A DNA stretch of 53,801 nucleotides from Rhodospirillaceae bacterium (GTDB lineage Bacteria; Pseudomonadota; Alphaproteobacteria; CACIAM-22H2). The DNA is taken from contig JALHMR010000035.1 of NCBI GenBank assembly GCA_022843945.1, positions 1 to 53,801 of the forward strand, in the 5' to 3' direction. Shown one piece after another: positions 3,894 through 46,272 of this stretch (within the stretch, counting starts at the first letter, position 1; the number at the start of each line of letters is the position of its first letter). Made by a program: the position numbers and the translations under genes. The notes beneath the pieces were generated by a model that made no database searches, was not told the DNA's origin, and saw only the letters and a program-made list of their open reading frames with translations.

Positions 3894-5300
3894 CTACAGG
3901 AGGCCGCGGAGCAGTCGCTCGAGGACGATATAGATTCCAAACGACAGCGCAATCGTTGCCGGCAAAGTGAGGACCCAGGCGAGGACCAGGCTGCGCACGG
4001 TGGCCGGCTGGATGCCCGTGCCCTGGGCCACCATGGTGCCGGCCACGCCTGAGGACAGGACATGCGTGGTGCTCACCGGCAGGCCGCCGAAATCGGCCAG
4101 GCCGATCGTGCCCATGGCCACGACCTCGGCCACGCCGCCCTGGGCGGGCGTCAGGTGCGTCCTGCCGATCCGCTCGCCGATCGTGCGCACGATGCGCTGA
4201 TAGCCGATCATGGTGCCGGCGGCGAGGGCGATGGCGCTGAGCAGCATCACCCAGCCCGGCACGAACTCGACCAGGCGGCGCAGATCGCTCCGCCAGAACG
4301 CGAGGTTCTGCCGGGCCGCCGCCGGCACCGCCGGGTTGCCGGCAAGATCGCCGGCATAGGCGATCAGGTGATAGGCGTCCTTGCGGGCGGCCATGCGCTC
4401 GGCGCCGGACAGGGTCTCCCCCTTTGCCGCGCGGGCCAGCAGGGTTTCGAGCTGCGTGGCTTCGTTGGCCGTGTCGCGGGCTTCGGCGGTTTTGGCTCCG
4501 AAGACCGCGATGGCCTGGCGTGTGCCGTCGGCGGCGCCGGCAATGCGTGCGAAGTCGGCCGGCTCGTGCCGCAGGTTGATCGCGTAGTCGAGGGGCAGCA
4601 GGGTGAGGACCACGATCATCAGGAAGCCAATGGTCTTCTGGCCGTCGTTCGAACCGTGGAAGAAGCTCACGCCGGCGCAGGTGGACATCAGCAGCCCGCG
4701 CAGCCAGTACGGCGGCCGATGATCGGGGCCGGGCGGGCGGTGCAGCTCGGGGCTGCGCAGCAACCGGCGCGAGACCAGCAGCAGGACCAGCGCCAGGCCG
4801 AAGCCGATGGTCGGCGAGATGAGCAGTGCCAGGCCGATCTCGCGCGCCTTGGACCAGCTCACCTGGCTGGTGACGCCGGCATCCGGGGTGAGCGATACCG
4901 CCAGGCCGACGCCGAGGATCGCGCCGATGATGGCGTGCGAGCTCGACGAGGGCAGGCCGAGATACCAGGTGCCGACGTTCCACAGCAGGGCCGCCAGCAG
5001 CACGGCGAAGAGCATGGCCAGCTCGCCGGCGAGGGTGCAGCCGTCGATGACTTCGGGCGGCAGCAGGTTGACGATGGCGAAGGCCACCGCCGTGCCGCTG
5101 AGCATCACTCCGGCGAAATTCCACAGCCCCGACCAGACGACGGCCGGCACGGCGTCGAGCGAGCGGGTGTAGATGACCGTGGCCACGGCGTTGGCCGTGT
5201 CGTGGAAACCGTTCGAGAATTCGAAGAACAGCACGAGGGCAAGGGCGACCAGCAGCAGGCTGAGCGTGATCGCCGGAATCGGCGCAAACAGTTCGAGCAT
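3894..5300 (-). CDS. pit: PiT-family inorganic phosphate transporter
   Basis: A 468-aa polytopic inner-membrane protein. It carries both PiT signatures: [21 protein letters not shown] near residue 27 and the second-half [13 protein letters not shown], with many hydrophobic segments and the [13 protein letters not shown] loop. PiT carriers take up metal-phosphate with protons at low affinity. A hydrophilic loop with two short charged stretches lies between the two halves (about residues 260-330). GGGGGT precedes the ATG. It heads a leftward unit with ubiD and pmbA. No pho box or PhoU-like gene (yjbB or DUF47) is seen beside it. Confidence 0.9.
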
Positions 5301-7366: not shown

Positions 7367-8107
7367 ATGAGAGGGTTACCAAAGAATTTCGCCGACCTGC
7401 TGACGGCCAAGGGCCGGCGCATCCTCGAGGGTCGCGACCGGACGGTGTCGGGGGCCCTGGCCGATCCGCGCCAGCCCTTTCTGGCGATAGAGGGGGCGCT
7501 CGACCGGGCCAAGGCGGCGGCCGTCTGGCCGCTCCTCGACCGCAGCCTGGGGCCGCACCTCGTGCCGCTCTCCCAGCCGATCCCGCCTGACTCGATCACC
7601 GGCCAGACCCGCAACTACCAGGAGCGCCTGCGCAAGACGGCGCGGGTACGCACGGCCTATCTGGAGCGGCGGCGGAGCAAGGCCTGGCAGGCGGCCGAGC
7701 ACATCGGCCTGATTGCCATGACCGGCAGCGAGGCTTATCGGCGTTTCGTGGAAGTGATCGCCGGCCGCGCCCTGGCCGGGAAATTCGGCCGCCAGGTTCT
7801 ATGCTACGGGCCCGGGGACTATGCCGGCCCGCATACCGACCATCACCCCGAAGACCCGAAGGCGGCGGCCGGCTATGTCGATTTCCACCTGACCTTCGCC
7901 GGGCCGGGCGTGGCGCGGCAGTATCTCGTCTACGCCCGGGACGGGCATTTCAGCGAGGATGTCGATGTCGCGACGGCCGGCGGTATCAGCGCCTATCGCC
8001 TGCCGTTCTGGCACTACACCACGCCGCTCAAGGCCAAACCCGGCAAGGCGGCAACGGCAAGGCGCTGGGTGGTGCTGGGGACGTTCCTCTACGCCGAGGC
8101 GTGCTGA
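7367..8107 (+). CDS. Putative 2OG-Fe(II) oxygenase-like protein
   Basis: A 246-aa protein not firmly recognised. Residues 146-163 read CYGPGDYAGPHTDHHPED, giving an HxD pair (H156, D158) after a GDY turn. VDFHLTFAG then looks like a core strand. FWHYTTPL offers a distal His (H216), with Arg 232/233 about 16 residues later. This is the order of Fe(II) and 2-oxoglutarate ligands in prolyl-hydroxylase-like enzymes, though the H-to-R spacing is longer than usual. The N-terminal third is basic and helical. It is divergent from zntB. A weak hairpin (8123-8138) follows the stop. Confidence 0.5.
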   Translation: MRGLPKNFADLLTAKGRRILEGRDRTVSGALADPRQPFLAIEGALDRAKAAAVWPLLDRSLGPHLVPLSQPIPPDSITGQTRNYQERLRKTARVRTAYLERRRSKAWQAAEHIGLIAMTGSEAYRRFVEVIAGRALAGKFGRQVLCYGPGDYAGPHTDHHPEDPKAAAGYVDFHLTFAGPGVARQYLVYARDGHFSEDVDVATAGGISAYRLPFWHYTTPLKAKPGKAATARRWVVLGTFLYAEAC

Positions 8108-8195
8108 CTTTTCCTCGCCACTGCGCAATTTCTTGCGCTTCGACAAAGTCGGTAATGACGCACAACCACGTCAAGCCGAATTTTGCTTTCGCCTG

Positions 8196-8435
8196 AGGGG
8201 TTTCCGGAGCGCCGCCCGGAAAAGGACGCAGGTGGTATGTGGTTGTGGTATTATCTCGAAATCCGCACGGCCTGAAAGGGTCGTGGTTGCGCACCCATAG
8301 GGCGTGACTGGCCTGAAGGGCTGCGGTTGACCTCATAGGGTCACACACACCCGGCCTGAAAGGGCCGCGGGCAGCCTCAACGGGCTGTGGCCCGCAAGTA
8401 GCATTAGAGGCGTGTTCGGCGCCGACACGCCTCTA
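8196..8435 (+). ncRNA. Candidate structured RNA with hairpin array
   Basis: A non-coding block between the oxygenase gene and the small ORF at 8527. It starts with a 7-bp stem (8201-8207 with 8216-8222). Three degenerate ~42-base repeats follow, starting at 8269, 8310 and 8353. Each has a GGCCTGAA(A)GGG half and a CC-TCA/CATA-GGG half, and each half can close a 3-4 bp stem. Some paired positions differ between copies but still pair (for example GGCC/GGCC against GGCC/GGCT, and AGCC/GGCT against ACC/GGT). It ends with an 11-bp stem (8405-8435, TAGAGGCGTGT arm) without a T-run. Structure is seen; transcription is inferred. Confidence 0.4.
8269..8396. repeat. Three degenerate ~42-bp tandem repeats
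   Basis: Units begin with GGCCTGAAAGGG at 8269, GGCCTGAAGGG at 8310 and GGCCTGAAAGGG at 8353 (spacing 41 and 43). The second half of each unit carries CCCATAGGG, CCTCATAGGG or CCTCAACGGG. The half-unit motifs therefore alternate about every 20 bases. No spacer-like unique segments occur, so this is not a CRISPR. Confidence 0.75.
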
Positions 8436-8526
8436 GATATCGAGAGACCTTAGCTTGCTGTGGTCCTAGTCACCTTCAGCATTGCAGGTCCCGCGCCGGG
8501 GAACTGCATGTTGTGGAGGTTGGCTC

Positions 8527-8706
8527 GTGGACTTTTCGCTCCGCCTGAACGGGCGTTGTTCGTTCACCATCTCAATCAAACCTAGGGCGCTGCTGCTGCT
8601 CGCCGTGCTGCTTGCTGGCGAGACAATCCTTAGTCGTGCAGGGCCGCTATTGTCGGCCCTCTTGCAGGTCACGCCTTCGCATTCTCACGCAGCCTCATTG
8701 GAATAG
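8527..8706 (+). CDS. Small hydrophobic ORF, unknown function
   Basis: A 59-aa ORF starting at a GTG, with a full GGAGG 7 bases upstream; this fixes the start over the TTG at 8482. The product has a basic N-terminus (LRLNGRCSFTISIKPR), one hydrophobic segment (ALLLLAVLLAGETIL) and a Ser/His-rich tail (TPSHSHAASLE). It is the size and shape of a single-pass membrane peptide, or of an exported peptide with a late signal sequence. It sits directly downstream of the hairpin array, which would form its 5' leader if they are co-transcribed. No family is recognised. Confidence 0.45.
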   Translation: MDFSLRLNGRCSFTISIKPRALLLLAVLLAGETILSRAGPLLSALLQVTPSHSHAASLE

Positions 8707-8791
8707 CGACTAATGGAACTCATCGCCACCGAATTGAATCCCGTTGCGATAGGCGGGCGAGGAATCATGCCATGGATGTAGCGACGACTCC

Positions 8792-9295
8792 TCATGAGAG
8801 TGCCGGAAGAAGCGTGCCGATGAATTGAAGCGATGCACCAACGCAGAAGATTGAAAATCCGAGCACACCTGCGGCTCTACGATCAGCAAGCATCTCTAGC
8901 CGCCGAAGGAGACGCGACACACCGAAAGTGATCCCCATCACCATCGCCAAAACAGCGAGAACGATTTGTGAAGCGGTGAACAAATTACGTCCGCCTGCCG
9001 TAAGCCAAGCAAGGCTGTCTTTGAGGACAAGATGATCTTTCTCTAGAACGCCACCGCTCAGGGCAACATTGATCACTAACACCGCAACTGTCAGAAACCC
9101 AAACAACAGCGCGGTCGACATCAAGGCAAGGCCAGCCACCGCTGCCAATAAGCTCGGTTTTTGCCGGGGCACAAGCAACAGCAGCCTTCGCCATCGACGA
9201 ATTTTATCCATTCCGATGGCATCAATGGCCAAAATGAAGCCTGCGATGACCTCAAGCAGGATTCCAACCAATGACAGCTCGGCCGCTATCGTCAT
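8792..9295 (-). CDS. Predicted four-helix membrane protein
   Basis: A 167-aa product. The start at 9295 (MTIAAELSLVG) is chosen because AGGGGG lies 5 bases upstream, better than the longer in-frame start at 9406. Four hydrophobic segments are visible: LVGILLEVIAGFILAI, LAAVAGLALMSTALLFGFLTVAVLVI, ASQIVLAVLAMVMGITFGV and VLGFSIFCVGASLQFIGTLL. A short basic loop (RRWRRLLLLVPRQK) lies between the first two. Base composition is less GC-rich than in flanking genes, which fits recent acquisition. No family or catalytic motif is recognised. Confidence 0.6.
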   Translation of the reverse strand: MTIAAELSLVGILLEVIAGFILAIDAIGMDKIRRWRRLLLLVPRQKPSLLAAVAGLALMSTALLFGFLTVAVLVINVALSGGVLEKDHLVLKDSLAWLTAGGRNLFTASQIVLAVLAMVMGITFGVSRLLRRLEMLADRRAAGVLGFSIFCVGASLQFIGTLLPALS

Positions 9296-10001
9296 TGAGC
9301 CCCCTATAAAATCACCCGCATTGTAATCGAGCCCCTGCACAAACGGGCGCGCGCTGCGATTTCCCCCCACCCCACCCGCGGCGACATACTGGCCGGGAAA
9401 GCTCATCTCGGACCAACTCGGACAACATATCGCAGAGAAGGGGGCGGAAACTTTGGTGTTGTGACGAAGATGGGGGCTGCCGCGGAGGCATTGCAGACTC
9501 TATTGAAGCTGCTTCCGTAACTCGATTTTCTTCGTCACGAAGGAAACCTCTAAACCTCTAATTCGTCGCGAATCGTAGCTCTCGCTTTCTCGCACGGCAC
9601 CCTGTGTAATTCTTGCGCTGGTACGACCCCAAGGATCACAGGCTTGCTATGCCGCGAGGGTCCTGTAGCGCTCGTACGCGGCGTGTATCGACCATAGGAC
9701 CTCAGGAAAATAGCTGCCGAGTTCTGCCACTGAACGTCCGGCACTGCCGGGCGAGGGCAGATTTGTGTGACATTGATTCTGGATTCGGCTCATCCGGCCG
9801 CCGTTGAGGCCGGACCCTCTTCACGAATACCGTCTATTGCCCCCGGGGCGCGGCGACGCTACTCAAACGGTGCGACAACCGAAATAAGATCGGCGCCAGC
9901 ATCCAGAAAGGGCGATATCGCGGCTAGGGGCCAATCCTTAACGACCGTGACCGCCCGATACCAAGCGAGGCACGAGCATCGGGTACGCTAAGACGGAAGC
10001 T
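9296..10001. other. Non-coding stretch with inverted repeats
   Basis: About 700 bases with no supportable gene; short ORFs on both strands lack ribosome sites and recognisable sequence. A 10-base inverted repeat, GTGACGAAGA at 9461-9470 and its complement at 9529-9538, brackets a 58-base centre and could be a relic of a very small mobile element. A short GGCC-rich dyad lies near 9796-9815. Composition is closer to the neighbouring accessory genes than to the housekeeping flanks. Confidence 0.4.
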
Positions 10002-10661
10002 TTAGCCCAGCAGCTCTTGGCAGTGGCGAACAAGTGTTTCCCGAACTTCGTAGGCGATTTGACGCGTTGAGGCGTACTCGGGACCATACGCTGGCGCGAC
10101 CGCCTGTGCGTTTCTAACGATTGACCAGCCGCCCGTGTTTTCGCGCCGCAATCCCGCGAAATACTCGTCGAAAGTGCCACTAACATGTCCGCCGCCTTCG
10201 TTATGGCGCATAAAGGTGATGAGGTTCTTGCGGGTCAATATGCGGTTTTTCTTGTCCTTCAGAATTCCGGCCTCCCACCAAGCTGTAAACTTCAACTCTG
10301 GCTCCGTGACATTGGTGGGTTGGCCGAGCCGCGGAACATAGACCTCCTCGTTGAGCGCCGCCTCGGACGGCGGGGCGGAGCTGAGATTGAGTAGCGTTAA
10401 AGGGGCTTCTGTCAGTTTGTTTCGTGGGTTGATCGGCCGAGCAGTGTTACAGAACGGGATCGATTTGCGGCCGACGTGTGTCAGCAAGGACACGTTATTT
10501 CGACCGTAATCATGAACATATACGTAGATCACGCCTGCTAGGCGCGCAGCTTCTCCCTTGTGACCTTCATCGTATGCCTTTGATGAAAGCTCCAGCGCTT
10601 CGAATGCGTGACGGAAATTTCGCCGCAGTTCGTCCGGTGTTTTAGGGTGATGAATTTTCAC
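10002..10661 (-). CDS. Conserved hypothetical protein, accessory
   Basis: A 219-aa soluble protein. It starts at a GTG with GGAG 5 bases upstream; a TATAAT (10691-10696, minus strand) lies at a good distance for a -10 box, though no clear -35 is seen. Recognisable blocks are RLAGVIYVYVHDYGRN, LTRKNLITFMRHNEGGGHV and STRQIAYEVRETLVRH. From memory these recur in a scattered family of uncharacterised bacterial proteins of similar length. No catalytic motif is established, though the HD in the first block and the EGGGH run are candidate functional residues. Its setting and lower GC suggest horizontal transfer. Confidence 0.7.
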   Translation of the reverse strand: MKIHHPKTPDELRRNFRHAFEALELSSKAYDEGHKGEAARLAGVIYVYVHDYGRNNVSLLTHVGRKSIPFCNTARPINPRNKLTEAPLTLLNLSSAPPSEAALNEEVYVPRLGQPTNVTEPELKFTAWWEAGILKDKKNRILTRKNLITFMRHNEGGGHVSGTFDEYFAGLRRENTGGWSIVRNAQAVAPAYGPEYASTRQIAYEVRETLVRHCQELLG

Positions 10662-10712
10662 GCTGACTCCACCGAATCGCTTTCGCGCGAATTATAGCCG
10701 AGTGTGGAGCGT

Positions 10713-11022
10713 TTACCCTGAGGCGTCTTCCAGCACTTCGTAATGCTCGACCGTTCGGTCGAAGCTGACCAGCGCGGCGGCGGCTTCGGGCTCGACCACC
10801 GCCTTCTCAACCTCCGCGCCTGCGAACTGGCGGATGGCGTCCATGGACTCCCAGCGCGTCATGACCAGGAACTCGATCTCCGGGCCCCGATCGCGGCGCC
10901 AGCGAGGCGCCGCGGAAACCGGTGATGGTGCGCAGCTCCGGCAGCACGCGGCGCCGGAAATGCTCGGGATAGGCCTGGCTCTTCGAAGCCGAGGCGCGTC
11001 CGCGCCAAGTTCTGATGATCAT
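10713..11022 (-). pseudogene. Frameshifted antibiotic-monooxygenase-like (ABM) gene
   Basis: Read leftward from ATG 11022, the first ~42 codons give MIIRTWRGRASASK ... GFRGASLA, the N-terminal half of an ABM-domain protein. The second half appears only in the next frame: RGPEIEFLVMTRWESMDAI, QFAGAEVEKAVVEPEA, then VEHYEVLEDASG and a stop at 10713. Together they make one ~102-aa ABM protein broken by a one-base surplus near 10892-10903, inside a GC-rich, partly palindromic run. Intact relatives are small dimeric heme- or quinone-acting monooxygenases. A true mutation and an assembly error look the same here. Confidence 0.75.
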
Positions 11023-11062
11023 GGGGTACGCACGATCATGGATGGCTCCGCGATTGAGAGCC

Positions 11063-11094
11063 TTGTATTATACAATTCGTCTACCATATGTCAA
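11063..11094 (-). promoter_or_regulatory. Consensus sigma70 promoter with palindrome on -10
   Basis: On the minus strand a perfect TTGACA (11089-11094) is followed, after 16 bases, by a perfect TATAAT (11067-11072). The expected transcript would start near 11060, about 38 bases before the ABM start codon. The -10 box sits in the perfect inverted repeat TTGTAT-T-ATACAA (11063-11075), which looks like a repressor operator placed to block RNA polymerase. No regulator gene is beside it. Confidence 0.8.
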
Positions 11095-11396
11095 GGCTGG
11101 CTCTTTGACATGGTGAAGGCTTGTTGGGGAATGCCGTGGATCGCGGCCGCCGGCCGCACCCTTTTTGCAACCGGCGCCTGCCCGAACTCATGACACTTAG
11201 CACCGGTTTTCGCGGCATTGTGGCAGAAGGATGGCTTTATGTCTTTGCTTGGGCGGCGCTGCTGCGGGTTTCCAGCGCCTTGGATTCACGGACGGATTTG
11301 ATGGACATTCATGTCCACACCTATCCAGAATGTATCGTATCTGTATCGTATGGGCCGCGCCGCCGCGGGCCGCCGCCGCGATTGCCGTAAATCGGC
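11095..11396. other. Intergenic stretch with operator-like repeats
   Basis: About 300 bases without a supportable gene. It contains the perfect inverted repeat TGGACAT-TC-ATGTCCA at 11302-11317 and a direct repeat of TGTATCGTAT at 11331-11340 and 11342-11351 (11-base period, one helical turn). Both are typical shapes for transcription-factor sites, but no obvious start codon or promoter they would serve is seen. The downstream end of the Cys-rich gene is at 11397. Confidence 0.45.
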
Positions 11397-12095
11397 TTAC
11401 TCCGCCGCGGTGGCGACCGGTTCGTCCTTGTAGGGGCCGTGCTGGCCGAACTCCGCCAGGCTCGCCGGCCGGAGGCGGTGGCTGCGCGGCTCGACCGCGT
11501 AGTAGCCGCCGTCGCGGCCGATCACCGGGATGATGCGGTTGCGCTTGGTGAAGACGCCGCGCATATCGGCCGAGAGCTTGTGATGGATATCGAACTCCTC
11601 GGTATCCTCGGCGAAGATCGCCTCGTAGGACTCCAGGCATTCGGTCACGAATTGCGGGGTGACGATGCCGAGATTGCTCAGCACCCAGCAGCGATCCTCG
11701 AAGTACCAGAATCCGGCGAGACCCAGGATGGTCCGCTCCCGGGTGACATAGGGAAAGAAAGGAAACGCGCGGCAGGCCATCGAGCGGTTGTCGCGCTCGC
11801 AATGAGCCGCCCCCTTGCATTCGACGGCGCGGCATTCCGAATGCATGTCGCTGACGATCTGGCGGTCGATGGCGCTCTTCGGCTTGAACAGGCGCCAAAG
11901 ATCGCTGCGCGATTTCAGCAGCTGCCATTCCCATTTGTCGACGATCGGCACGGCGTTGCTGGTGTCGCAGCAGACCGGCTGGCCGCCATTATGGGGAGCG
12001 CAGTGCCTGCCGCAGTCGAAACGCGAGACGGGCGCCTGGAATTTTTCGTAGACGCGACGATAGAGCTCGACGCGAGACTTCTTGGGCAGGGACAT
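11397..12095 (-). CDS. Cys-rich YkgJ-like putative metal-cluster protein
   Basis: A 232-aa protein beginning MSLPKKSRVELYRRVYEKF. It has many cysteines in clusters: FDCGRHC, PVCCDTSN, and SECRAVECKGAAHCERDNRSMACRAFPF, which resemble the CxxxCC-type zinc/iron-binding YkgJ family. The C-terminal part (FWYFEDRCWVLSNLGIV onward) is a conserved-looking globular region. No signal peptide is seen, so it is probably cytoplasmic. It is divergent from the multicopper oxidase with 81 bases between the starts, so shared copper-linked control is possible but unproven. Function is unknown. Confidence 0.7.
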   Translation of the reverse strand: MSLPKKSRVELYRRVYEKFQAPVSRFDCGRHCAPHNGGQPVCCDTSNAVPIVDKWEWQLLKSRSDLWRLFKPKSAIDRQIVSDMHSECRAVECKGAAHCERDNRSMACRAFPFFPYVTRERTILGLAGFWYFEDRCWVLSNLGIVTPQFVTECLESYEAIFAEDTEEFDIHHKLSADMRGVFTKRNRIIPVIGRDGGYYAVEPRSHRLRPASLAEFGQHGPYKDEPVATAAE

Positions 12096-12169: not shown

Positions 12170-12176
12170 TTTCGCC

Positions 12177-13595
12177 ATGACCGTCTCGCGCCGCCAGTTT
12201 CTCGCCGCTTCCGCCGCCTTCGGCGCGCTGGGCCCGGCCGCGCGTGCCCAGCCGGCGGGCAAACAGCTGATTCCGGGGCCGTCCCGCGCGGCGATCGTGC
12301 CCGGTCAGCGCGAAACCGAGGTCTGGGCCTACAACGACTCGGTGCCCGGGCCGACCCTGCGCTTTCGCCAGGGCGAGCGGGCGCGCATCCTGGTCGAGAA
12401 CCGCCTGGGCGAGGAGACCACGGTCCATTGGCACGGGGTGCGCGTGCCCAATGCGATGGATGGGGTGGCTCACCTCACCCAGCCGCCGATCGCGCCGGGG
12501 GCGCGTTTTACTTACGAATTCGACCTGCCCGATGCCGGGACCTTCTGGTATCACCCGCATGCCCGCAGCGCCGAGCAGGTGGAGCGGGGCCTGGCCGGCG
12601 CCTTCATCGTCGACGAGCGCGCGCCGCCGGGTGTCGACCGCGACCTCGTCTGGGTGCTCGATGACTGGCGGCTGACGCCCGAGGCCGCGGTGGCCGGCGA
12701 GTTCGGCAATCTGATGGATGCGAGCCATGCCGGCCGCATCGGCAACACGGTCACCATCAACGGCCGTGTCCCGTCGGCGCCGTTCCCGCTGCAGGCCGGC
12801 GAGCGCCTGCGCCTGCGCCTGATCAACGCCGCCAATGCCCGGGTCTTCGGCCTGGAGTTCGGGACGCTGGCGCCCACCATTGTCGCCCTCGACGGCCACC
12901 CGGTCGAGCCGCACGCGCCACTTGGCGGGCGGGTCGTGCTCGGGCCGGCGATGCGGGCCGACCTGATCGTCGATGTTGCCGCCGCCGGCGGGATGGTCGC
13001 CATCAACGACACGTTCTACCGGCAACGGATCTACAAGCTCGTCGATCTGGCGATCGAAGGCAGGGGCCGTGCACGGGCTCGCACCGCGCTCCGGCTTCCC
13101 GCCAACCCGCTAGCCGTTCCTGACCTGTCGCGCGCCGAGCGCCATGTCATGGAGTTCGGCGGCGGGATGATGGATCCCCGGCTGATGCGCTCGATCCGTG
13201 AACGCGGCGGCCAGCCCGATCCTGACATGATCCGCTCGATGCGCGAGCGCATGCTCGCCGGCCATGTCTGGTCGATCAACGGCCAGTCCGTCCGTCACGG
13301 CGAGCACCATCATGAGCCACTGCTGACCCTCGAACGCGGCCGCTCCTATGTCCTGGCCATGAACAACGACACGGCCTGGCATCACCCGATGCATCTTCAC
13401 GGGATGACCTTCCGCATGCTGTCGCGCAACGGCGTGGCGGTGCCGCATGGCGAATGGCGGGATACGGCCCTGCTCGATCCGGGGGAACGGGTCGAAATCG
13501 CCTTTGTTGCCGACAATCCCGGCGACTGGATGTTCCACTGCCACGTCCTGGAGCATCAGGAAGCCGGCATGATGGGCACCTTCCGCGTTAGCTGA
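12177..13595 (+). CDS. Tat-exported multicopper oxidase, CueO-like
   Basis: A 472-aa laccase-fold enzyme. The N-terminus MTVSRRQFLAASAAFGALG is a twin-arginine signal, so it acts in the periplasm after folding with copper. All four copper motifs are present: HWHG (H84, H86), WYHPHA, HPMHLHG (from H403) and FHCHVLEH (H454-H460, followed by Met as axial-type ligand). A Met-rich segment before the last domain (MEFGGGMMDPRLMRSI, then DMIRSMRERML) resembles the cuprous-ion-binding insert of CueO. It probably oxidises Cu(I) for copper tolerance. The CueR-type promoter supports this. No Shine-Dalgarno precedes the ATG. Confidence 0.92.
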   Translation: MTVSRRQFLAASAAFGALGPAARAQPAGKQLIPGPSRAAIVPGQRETEVWAYNDSVPGPTLRFRQGERARILVENRLGEETTVHWHGVRVPNAMDGVAHLTQPPIAPGARFTYEFDLPDAGTFWYHPHARSAEQVERGLAGAFIVDERAPPGVDRDLVWVLDDWRLTPEAAVAGEFGNLMDASHAGRIGNTVTINGRVPSAPFPLQAGERLRLRLINAANARVFGLEFGTLAPTIVALDGHPVEPHAPLGGRVVLGPAMRADLIVDVAAAGGMVAINDTFYRQRIYKLVDLAIEGRGRARARTALRLPANPLAVPDLSRAERHVMEFGGGMMDPRLMRSIRERGGQPDPDMIRSMRERMLAGHVWSINGQSVRHGEHHHEPLLTLERGRSYVLAMNNDTAWHHPMHLHGMTFRMLSRNGVAVPHGEWRDTALLDPGERVEIAFVADNPGDWMFHCHVLEHQEAGMMGTFRVS

Positions 13596-43104: not shown

Positions 43105-43163
43105 CGCTTCCAGGTTCCCCCGATTGACAAGCCGGGGCTACCCGGCCCAAGCTTGCGACGACT

Positions 43164-43368
43164 CGCGCGGGAGAGACCGTGCCCCAGCCAAGCTGGGGGG
43201 CGGCGCCGAAGGAGCAACCGCCCCGGAAACTCTCAGGCAGAAGGACCGCGCGCAGTCGTTGAACTCTGGAAAGCGGATCGCCGTCGCTAAAGTGGCGGTC
43301 CCACCGAAGATGTAAGTCAGGCCTTCTAGCAAGCCTGGCGAATCTTTCAGGTCCAAGGACAGAGGGGG
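43164..43368 (+). ncRNA. Tandem glycine riboswitch
   Basis: Two glycine-aptamer copies lie 55 bases before gcvT. Aptamer 1 runs from CGCGCGGGAGAG to the core GAAACTCTCAGGCAGAAGGAC; aptamer 2 from GAACTCTGGAAAGCGG to CGAATCTTTCAGGTCCAAGG and ACAGAG. The GGAGAG/CUCAGG(C/U) pairing and AAGGAC core are characteristic. It should switch on the gcv operon when glycine is abundant. The linker between the aptamers is short, as usual. Confidence 0.93.
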
Positions 43369-44929: not shown

Positions 44930-46272
44930 TGCGCTACCTGCCGCATACCGAGGCGGACCGCCGCGCCATGCTGCAGGCGATCGGTGCGGCCTCGGTCGAC
45001 GAGCTCTATCGCGACGTGCCTGCTTCGGCTCGGCGCAAGGATCCCGTCGATCTGCCGCCGCACCAGGGCGAGCTGGCGGTCGAGCGCGAGCTGATGGCGC
45101 TGGCCAGCCAGAACCGCCCCGCCGGCTCGATGGCCTCGTTCGTCGGAGCGGGCGCCTATCGCCACCATGTTCCGGCCTCGGTCGATCATTTGATCCAGCG
45201 CGGCGAGTTCCTCACCTCCTACACGCCCTACCAGCCCGAAGTGGCCCAGGGCACTTTGCAGATGCTGTTCGAGTTCCAGACCCAGGTGGCGCTGATCTCC
45301 GGCATGGAGGTGGCGAACGCCTCGATGTACGACGGCGCCACTTCCGCGGCTGAAGCGGTCCTGATGGCCAACCGTGTCACCCGCCGCAAGAAGGCGCTGC
45401 TCTCCGGCGGCCTCCATCCGCATTACCGCGAGACGGTCGAGACCTACGGGCGCTGGGGCGGCTTCGATATCAAGTCGGCCGCGCCCGATCCGGCGGGTAC
45501 CGAGGACCTTGCGGCCCTGATCGATGGCGAGACCTCCTGCGTGGTGGTGCAGAATCCTTCGGTCTTCGGCCAGATCCGCGACCTGTCGGCGCTGGCCGCG
45601 GCTGCGCAGAAAGCCGGGGCGCTGCTCGTCGTCGTCGTCACGGAAGTCGTGTCGCTCGGCCTGCTCAAGCCGCCGGGCGCCATGGGCTGCGACATCTTCG
45701 TCGGCGAGGGCCAGTCGATCGGCAACGCCCTCAATTTCGGCGGGCCCTATGTCGGGCTGTTCGCCACGCGCGAGAAATACGTACGCCAGATGCCCGGCCG
45801 CCTGGCCGGCGAGACCGTCGATGTCGACGGCCGCCGCGGCTGGGTGCTGACCCTGTCGACCCGCGAGCAGCACATCCGCCGTGAGAAGGCGACCTCGAAC
45901 ATCTGCACCAATGCCGGCCTCTGCGCCCTGTCGTTCTGCATCCACCTGTCGCTGCTCGGCGAGGATGGCTTCACCCAGCTCGCCCAGCTCAACCATGCCC
46001 GCGCCGCGCAGCTCGCGGAGAAGCTCGGCACGATCAAGGGCGTGACCGTGCTCAACGATTCCTTCTTCAACGAGTTCACCCTGAAGCTGCCCAAGCCCGC
46101 CGGCCCGGTGGTCGACCGGCTGGTCGACAAGGGCGTGCTGGCCGGCGTGCCCGGGTCGCGATTGTGGCCGGATCGTCCGGAGCTTGCCGATCACCTGATC
46201 GTCGCCGCCACCGAGACCAACACGGACGCGGACATGGATCTCTACGCGCGCGCGCTGGCGGAGGTGCTGTGA
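44929..46272 (+). CDS. gcvPA: Glycine decarboxylase subunit 1 (P, N-terminal half)
   Basis: A 447-aa protein; together with gcvPB it forms the split P protein that decarboxylates glycine. [15 protein letters not shown] is the subunit-1 start, [20 protein letters not shown] and [20 protein letters not shown] are diagnostic, as is [14 protein letters not shown]. It has no PLP lysine, as expected. It overlaps both neighbours by one base in TGATG joints, so translation is coupled. Confidence 0.96.

What the first reader, a model, noticed from the sequence alone, without database searches (positions are those of the whole stretch)
8196..8435. Array of small hairpins in three ~42-bp repeats
Seen: GGCCTGAA(A)GGG starts at 8269, 8310 and 8353, alternating with CC-x-TCA/ATA-GGG half-units. 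Each half can close a 3-4 bp stem, and several paired positions change together between copies. Stable stems flank the array (8201-8222; 8405-8435). It lies between two genes and ends 90 bases before a small ORF with a perfect ribosome site. This fits a structured leader or a small RNA, perhaps one that binds multiple copies of a protein. I know of no named RNA class with this pattern.
Basis: partly seen in the sequence, partly recalled or inferred. Interest (0 to 1): 0.6.

Follow-up and report, generated by a model that had tools for sequence, protein, structure and literature searches.

The report
Orphan array of six RNA hairpins
A short stretch of DNA on what looks like a foreign insert would fold, as RNA, into a row of six look-alike hairpins whose stems change letters in matching pairs; it looks like a real structured RNA, but no relative and no known RNA family was found, so its job is a guess.

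Summary
Window 8266-8388 (+ strand) can form six hairpins, alternating GAAA-type and CATA/CAAC-type loops; GGCCTGAA(A)GGG units start at 8269, 8310, 8353. It beats chance: five hairpins counted, 0 of 2000 shuffles reach five; folding z -3.59 on +, -1.12 on -; compensatory changes between copies at three stem positions. It lies at the left end of a ~3.3-kb lower-GC segment (8108-11397) missing from the one same-genus genome held. An extended -10 match ends 12 bases before the first stem. Best reading: a small RNA of about 175 nt that shows repeated hairpins to a protein, as a decoy; transcription, ends and partner are inferred. CsrA was not found in the genome, the loops break the ANTAR rule, no type III toxin was recognised. 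Against: h3 and h5 are predicted to pair with each other, not to fold alone; no U run after the last hairpin; no homologue found in limited searches, so covariation across species, the decisive test, could not be run. An interesting orphan, not an established RNA.

The parts
8108..11397 (.). ~3.3-kb segment between two convergent genes that lie 15 nt apart in the same-genus genome; carries the array at its left end
   Evidence: GC of 400-nt windows 0.54-0.64 against 0.60-0.73 in the windows outside
8201..8222 (+). upstream hairpin, TTTCCGG...CCGGAAA
8246..8254 (+). TGGTATTAT, extended -10 promoter-like match; a start would be near 8260; no good -35
   Evidence: only TGNTATNAT in the window on either strand; motif chosen after seeing it; one search found no sigma-70 match by its rule
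8266..8285 (+). hairpin h1 (type A): 8 pairs, GAAA loop
8286..8308 (+). hairpin h2 (type B): four-base loop at CATA, bulged A
8310..8322 (+). hairpin h3 (type A, loop one base shorter); in the full fold its arms pair with h5 instead
8328..8343 (+). hairpin h4 (type B): CATA loop
8350..8370 (+). hairpin h5 (type A): GAAA loop; competes with the h3-h5 pairing
8371..8388 (+). hairpin h6 (type B): CAAC loop
8405..8435 (+). strong hairpin (-20.9 kcal/mol) after the array; possible 3' end, but no run of U follows
8527..8706 (+). small ORF, GTG start, 59 aa with one hydrophobic stretch, GGAGG at 8515-8519
8542..8555 (+). look-alike hairpin h7 inside the small ORF; also scored as terminator-like; not significant when left out of the model

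Best explanation
The array is the body of a structured RNA read from the + strand, most likely a free-standing small RNA of about 175 nt that starts near 8260 (extended -10 at 8246-8254) and ends around the hairpin at 8405-8435. It works as a repeated display of one hairpin type (CCU-SANN-GGG with changing outer pairs, alternating GAAA and CATA/CAAC loops), offers several copies of a binding site to a protein and so titrates it, in the manner of multi-hairpin decoy RNAs. Shown: the repeat, compensatory stem changes between copies, better folding on +, position on a segment missing from relatives. Inferred: that it is transcribed, its ends, that it binds a protein, that titration is the outcome.
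For: Five hairpins counted in 8258-8400 against a shuffle mean of 0.3; 0 of 2000 reach it. + strand z -3.59, 0 of 200 shuffles as low; - strand z -1.12, 31 of 200. Of 94 window-strand tests over the segment the four lowest z start at 8248-8388, all on +; they cover the array and the hairpin at 8405-8435. Copies differ by C-G/U-A and G-C/A-U swaps while the inner CCU...GGG is kept: shape and inner letters stay, outer letters drift, as expected of a recognised hairpin. Five of six frames of 8261-8436 are broken by stops inside. The only TGNTATNAT of the window ends 12 bases before h1.
Against: No homologue found, so conservation is untested. The minimum-energy fold (-93.9) beats the six-hairpin fold (-78.1 kcal/mol) by pairing h3 with h5, whose own inner pairs get probabilities 0.0004 and 0.006. 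No sigma-70 match by rule and no terminator-like site at 8405-8435; terminator-like sites are at 8090-8103 and 8542-8555, against 1.1 expected. One of 60 control tests at 20-26 kb has z -4.78, lower than the array; the fifth lowest z in the segment is on -. One - frame is open across nearly all of 8261-8436, within a mechanical ORF 8028-8348. No binding protein or target found.
Confidence: 0.35

Rival explanations
1. The array is a long structured 5' leader of the 59-aa ORF (8527-8706): transcription runs through, and folding or a bound factor controls translation or read-through.
For: The ORF starts 91 bases after the last hairpin, with GGAGG 7 nt before GTG; codon-position GC 0.60/0.48/0.67 fits coding weakly; a look-alike hairpin h7 lies near its start and is scored as terminator-like, so read-through control is conceivable.
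Against: No family match in Pfam, PHROGs, NCBIfam, PADLOC, none in plasmids, and among 61 genomes only itself and one weak hit at E 0.0095. With h7 left out of the model it scores 13.3 bits, rank 13 of 43 in the window.
Confidence: 0.25
2. A relic: a local burst of hairpin duplications, or the remains of a mobile-element end, carried on the segment with no present function.
For: Confined to a segment missing from the same-genus genome; one locus in the genome by DNA; no relative in the searches made.
Against: Neutral drift of duplicated hairpins should break pairs; 97.1% of cells remain paired, with two-sided changes at three positions. Folding is better on + than -.
Confidence: 0.2
3. DNA-level element: inverted repeats bound by a dimeric repressor, or single-strand hairpins of a replication or transfer origin.
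For: Inverted repeats; the segment looks foreign; folded as DNA, + strand z -2.54 (4 of 200 shuffles as low) and - strand -1.40 (20 of 200).
Against: Outer arms vary in compensatory fashion while the centre is kept, opposite to a palindromic operator. Loop centres are 22, 18.5, 19.5, 24 and 20 bases apart (worked out by hand), not evenly phased. Stems use G-U pairs. The three ORFs scanned in the segment match no replication, relaxase or integrase family.
Confidence: 0.1
4. A cluster of hairpins that ends or insulates transcription between the converging genes.
For: Hairpin clusters are reported as intrinsic terminators, U runs not needed (PMC8355165: abstract, outline and passages).
Against: The abstract puts 98% of correctly identified sites within 80 bases of the stop codon; the array starts 158 bases past the stop at 8107, which has a terminator-like site of its own at 8090-8103. 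Matching repeated hairpins are not needed for termination. The same-genus genome lacks it.
Confidence: 0.1

Closest known systems
CsrB/RsmZ-type decoy small RNAs
   Same: one RNA with many repeated short hairpins that bind several copies of one protein (for CsrB: PMC7652899 passages)
   Different: CsrB sites are GGA, mostly in loops (same passages); here GGG lies in the stem and no loop holds GGA; the genome gave no CsrA match
ANTAR dual-hairpin targets, and the decoys EutX and Rli55 (their decoy role is recalled; only a search listing was seen)
   Same: tandem short hairpins that can be read with a six-base loop; the genome has one ANTAR protein
   Different: ANTAR loops need A at 1 and G at 4 (PMC3369931 passages); here the six-base loops are UGAAAG, UCAUAG, UGAAAG, UCAACG
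Type III toxin-antitoxin RNA repeats (ToxI, TenpI, CptI)
   Same: a few tandem short repeats before an ORF; ToxIN-family repeats are 34-36 nt in 2.8-5.5 copies (PMC5086642 passages)
   Different: no toxin recognised; units here are two hairpins with diverged copies
pan and STAXI motifs
   Same: RNA motifs that occur in tandem; pan is thought to suit a dimeric protein (PMC2864571 passages)
   Different: STAXI is a repeated pseudoknot and pan has two bulged A; no Rfam family reached its threshold here

Membership tests
CsrB/RsmZ decoy RNA | repeated GGA in hairpin loops | tested here: not met
   loops of h1-h6 as folded hold no GGA; rule from PMC7652899 passages
CsrB/RsmZ decoy RNA | CsrA/RsmA in the same genome | tested here: not met
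   PF02599: 0 of 1 genome (96.66% complete); 3 of 14 control genomes ring
ANTAR target or decoy | neighbouring hairpins with six-base loops, A at 1 and G at 4 | tested here: not met
   0 of 4 six-base loops fit (h1, h4, h5, h6); h2 and h3 have other loop lengths; rule from PMC3369931 passages
ANTAR target or decoy | ANTAR protein in the genome | tested here: met
   one PF03861 match, 80.2 bits; 0 of 14 control genomes ring, so the control does not show sensitivity. By eye its neighbour resembles a nitrate-type binding protein
Type III toxin-antitoxin | endoribonuclease toxin ORF after the repeats | tested here: not met
   small ORF, 204-aa and 219-aa ORFs: no Pfam, NCBIfam or PADLOC match at E 0.1
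Type III toxin-antitoxin | repeat units fold as pseudoknots | not tested
   pseudoknots were not modelled
REP/BIME-type dispersed palindromes (recalled) | many copies across the genome | tested here: not met
   one locus by DNA, 40 of 52 candidates scored. The single-hairpin model is too weak to settle it: the array's own hairpins score E 0.3-4.6, and 11 of 16 hits lie elsewhere, all 11 in mechanical ORFs of 100 aa or more, which are common by chance
any Rfam 15 family | match above gathering score | tested here: not met
   none at the array; only a glycine riboswitch elsewhere in the window; three sub-threshold matches at E 2.9-6.2 in 8050-8750
structured RNA in general | covariation among homologues from different species | not testable with these tools
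   no homologue found

The most novel reading that the evidence does not exclude
A new class of horizontally acquired small RNA: six CCU-SANN-GGG-type hairpins alternating two loop types that soak up an as yet unknown RNA-binding protein of the host or of a rival mobile element, with switching between separate hairpins and an h3-h5 duplex that joins the GAA and GAAA loops into one internal loop.
Probability: 0.15. Interest if true: 0.65.

Novelty: new variant of a known kind. Interest (0 to 1): 0.38.

Why it matters
To my knowledge (recalled) multi-hairpin decoy RNAs are known for few proteins, and no CsrA was found in this genome. A verified array with a new loop code on a mobile segment would point to an unrecognised RNA-binding protein or to an RNA-based move in conflict between mobile elements. 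If it is a relic, it warns that paired changes can be kept among duplicated hairpins without function.

Tried and rejected
Homologue hunts. DNA of the region against 61 relatives: own, plus one genome with a 25-nt match in the Leu codons of the small ORF; at most 9 candidates per genome were scored. Against 385 class genomes: 12 with a match, namely own and 11 with short ones of 23-37 nt, ten at about 8585-8622 (the Leu codons) and one at 8495-8517; at most 2 candidates per genome were scored, so sensitivity is low. Plasmids and phages: none. Two-hairpin pattern in 116 genomes: 12 with a match, 17 places, two of them in the own genome (one is the array); the reversed control pattern rang in 5 genomes. 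Searches (5 stretches; 1 stretch) used patterns the array fits; the hits read by eye as coding repeats or unrelated. Genome contigs: 20 stretches, read by eye with 110-base flanks; I saw no third hairpin in any. One search looked through all loci held by then for three or more paired hairpins in 150 nt: besides the window and its own loci only L165, L180 and L272, which by eye have the 15-base period of coding repeats.

h7. It is the only CCTSA..GGG hairpin with two or more outer pairs on the + strand of the window outside the array, and was tempting as a target at the small ORF. Left out of the model it scored 13.3 bits, E 1.9 in the window, rank 13 of 43, below seven hits outside the array; so the idea is not supported.

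Others. The alignment of whole units misplaced unit 2 and was not used. Viral relatives of the 219-aa and 169-aa proteins: none. Segment ends: no terminal repeats at the settings used. No tRNA in the window. Literature: seven searches, on hairpin arrays, gave 0 papers; I saw no description of this motif in those listings. Papers seen in passages only: PMC2864571, PMC3369931, PMC5086642, PMC7652899; PMC8355165 in abstract, outline and passages.

Full report
What is there. The three GGCCTGAA(A)GGG units start at 8269, 8310 and 8353, each followed by a B-type half-unit with a CATA or CAAC loop. As RNA from the + strand this can make six hairpins, h1-h6, over 8266-8388; taken alone they fold at -11.4, -9.7, -5.3, -6.9, -13.9 and -10.3 kcal/mol. 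Four of them (h1, h4, h5, h6) share the inner part CCU-SANN-GGG, readable as a four-base loop closed by U-G or as a six-base loop.

Is it more than chance. In 8258-8400 five CC..GG hairpins of five or more pairs are found on +; 0 of 2000 dinucleotide shuffles reach five (mean 0.3, maximum 3). On - there are three, reached by 3 of 2000. In the wider 8196-8435 the counts are five and four, neither reached by 2000 shuffles, so this count alone does not choose a strand. Stepping 143-nt windows by 20 over the whole window, places away from the array reach at most three on + (4321-4341 and 45701-45741) and two on - in the top-12 lists. Folding z for 8258-8400 is -3.59 on + (0 of 200 shuffles as low) and -1.12 on - (31 of 200). 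Of 94 window-strand tests over 8108-11397 the four lowest z start at 8248, 8261, 8318 and 8388, all on +; the last covers mainly the hairpin at 8405-8435; the fifth is on -. One of 60 control tests at 20-26 kb reached -4.78, lower than the array, so z alone is not decisive.

Paired changes. On an alignment of h1, h3, h4, h5, h6 and h7 (h2 left out for its bulged A) 97.1% of 35 cells pair; the covariation score is 0.478 against 0.220 in shuffles (2 of 500 reach it) and at most 0.078 when partners are slid. Three of six pairs change on both sides; 31 of 500 shuffles reach three, so that measure is weaker. The three inner pairs never vary and say nothing for the stem, except that inner letters are kept while outer ones drift. 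These are copies within one locus, not species, and h7 was chosen by eye; without it the three positions still hold a two-sided change, seen directly in the rows.

Fold ambiguity. The arms are nearly self-complementary, so copies can pair with each other. In the fold of 8261-8437 one inner pair each of h1, h2, h4 and h6 has probability 0.97, 0.93, 0.999 and 0.996, but those of h3 and h5 only 0.0004 and 0.006: h3 and h5 pair with each other around h4, leaving a GAA/GAAA internal loop. That fold is -93.9 against -78.1 kcal/mol for six separate hairpins. Folding during transcription could still favour separate hairpins; this is inference.

Surroundings. The left neighbour (7367-8107) and the right neighbour (from about 11398, - strand) lie 15 nt apart in the same-genus genome (L142) and close together in four further relatives (L143, L146, L147, L151): 5 of 15 relative loci. 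The other ten gave no match to the right neighbour in the stretch held. So 8108-11397 is most simply a gained segment. GC of its 400-nt windows is 0.54-0.64, against 0.60-0.73 outside between 6000 and 13000. It holds the array, the small ORF, a membrane-type ORF (8792-9301, -) with no relative in 385 class genomes, and a 219-aa ORF (10002-10661, -) that matches phrog_7805 (E 1.7e-28, function unknown) and an Arthrobacter phage protein at 25.8% identity. No terminal repeats were found, and the three ORFs scanned gave no integrase or transposase family.

Transcription signals. TGGTATTAT at 8246-8254 is an extended -10 match, the only TGNTATNAT in the window on either strand (motif chosen after seeing it), and would put a start near 8260, just before h1. 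The consensus scan found no sigma-70 site by its rule. Its two terminator-like sites are 8090-8103, at the end of the left gene, and 8542-8555, which is h7; 1.1 are expected by chance. The hairpin at 8405-8435 is strong (-20.9) but has no run of U after it, so the 3' end is uncertain and could lie further on. Five of six frames of 8261-8436 are broken by stops inside; one - frame has its only stop at the very edge and is open across the rest, within a mechanical ORF at 8028-8348.

Known kinds. No Rfam family at the array. CsrA decoys are argued against: no GGA loops, and no CsrA match in the genome while 3 of 14 control genomes ring. ANTAR: one ANTAR protein is present, but none of the four six-base loops has A at 1 and G at 4, the rule in passages of PMC3369931. 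Type III antitoxin: no toxin recognised; pseudoknots were not modelled. REP-like: one locus by DNA; the single-hairpin model R1 is too weak to settle this, since the array's own hairpins score E 0.3-4.6; of its 16 hits 11 lie elsewhere, all in mechanical ORFs of 100 aa or more.

Homologues. None found. Absence holds only for what these calls examined.

Judgement. The hairpin array is very likely real as a sequence feature; a transcribed, working RNA is the best reading but rests on evidence from one locus. The decoy mechanism is the reading I commit to, at 0.35; leader, relic, DNA element and terminator cluster are the rivals.

Noticed in passing
43158-43258 (+): Glycine riboswitch aptamer, 60.3 bits, the only Rfam match above threshold in the window.
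   Followed up: no
10002-10661 (-): 219-aa ORF matching phrog_7805 (unknown function) and an Arthrobacter phage BrayBeast protein at 25.8% identity; a phage-linked gene on the gained segment. No relative in 40 other genomes.
   Followed up: partly
8792-9301 (-): Membrane-protein-like ORF without a match in Pfam, PHROGs, NCBIfam, plasmids or 385 class genomes other than its own.
   Followed up: partly
10720-11020 (-): By eye and from memory, a broken gene resembling antibiotic-biosynthesis monooxygenases; the 70-aa piece at 10807-11019 gave no Pfam match.
   Followed up: partly
12174-13592 (+): Multicopper oxidase with a weak TAT signal just right of the segment.
   Followed up: no
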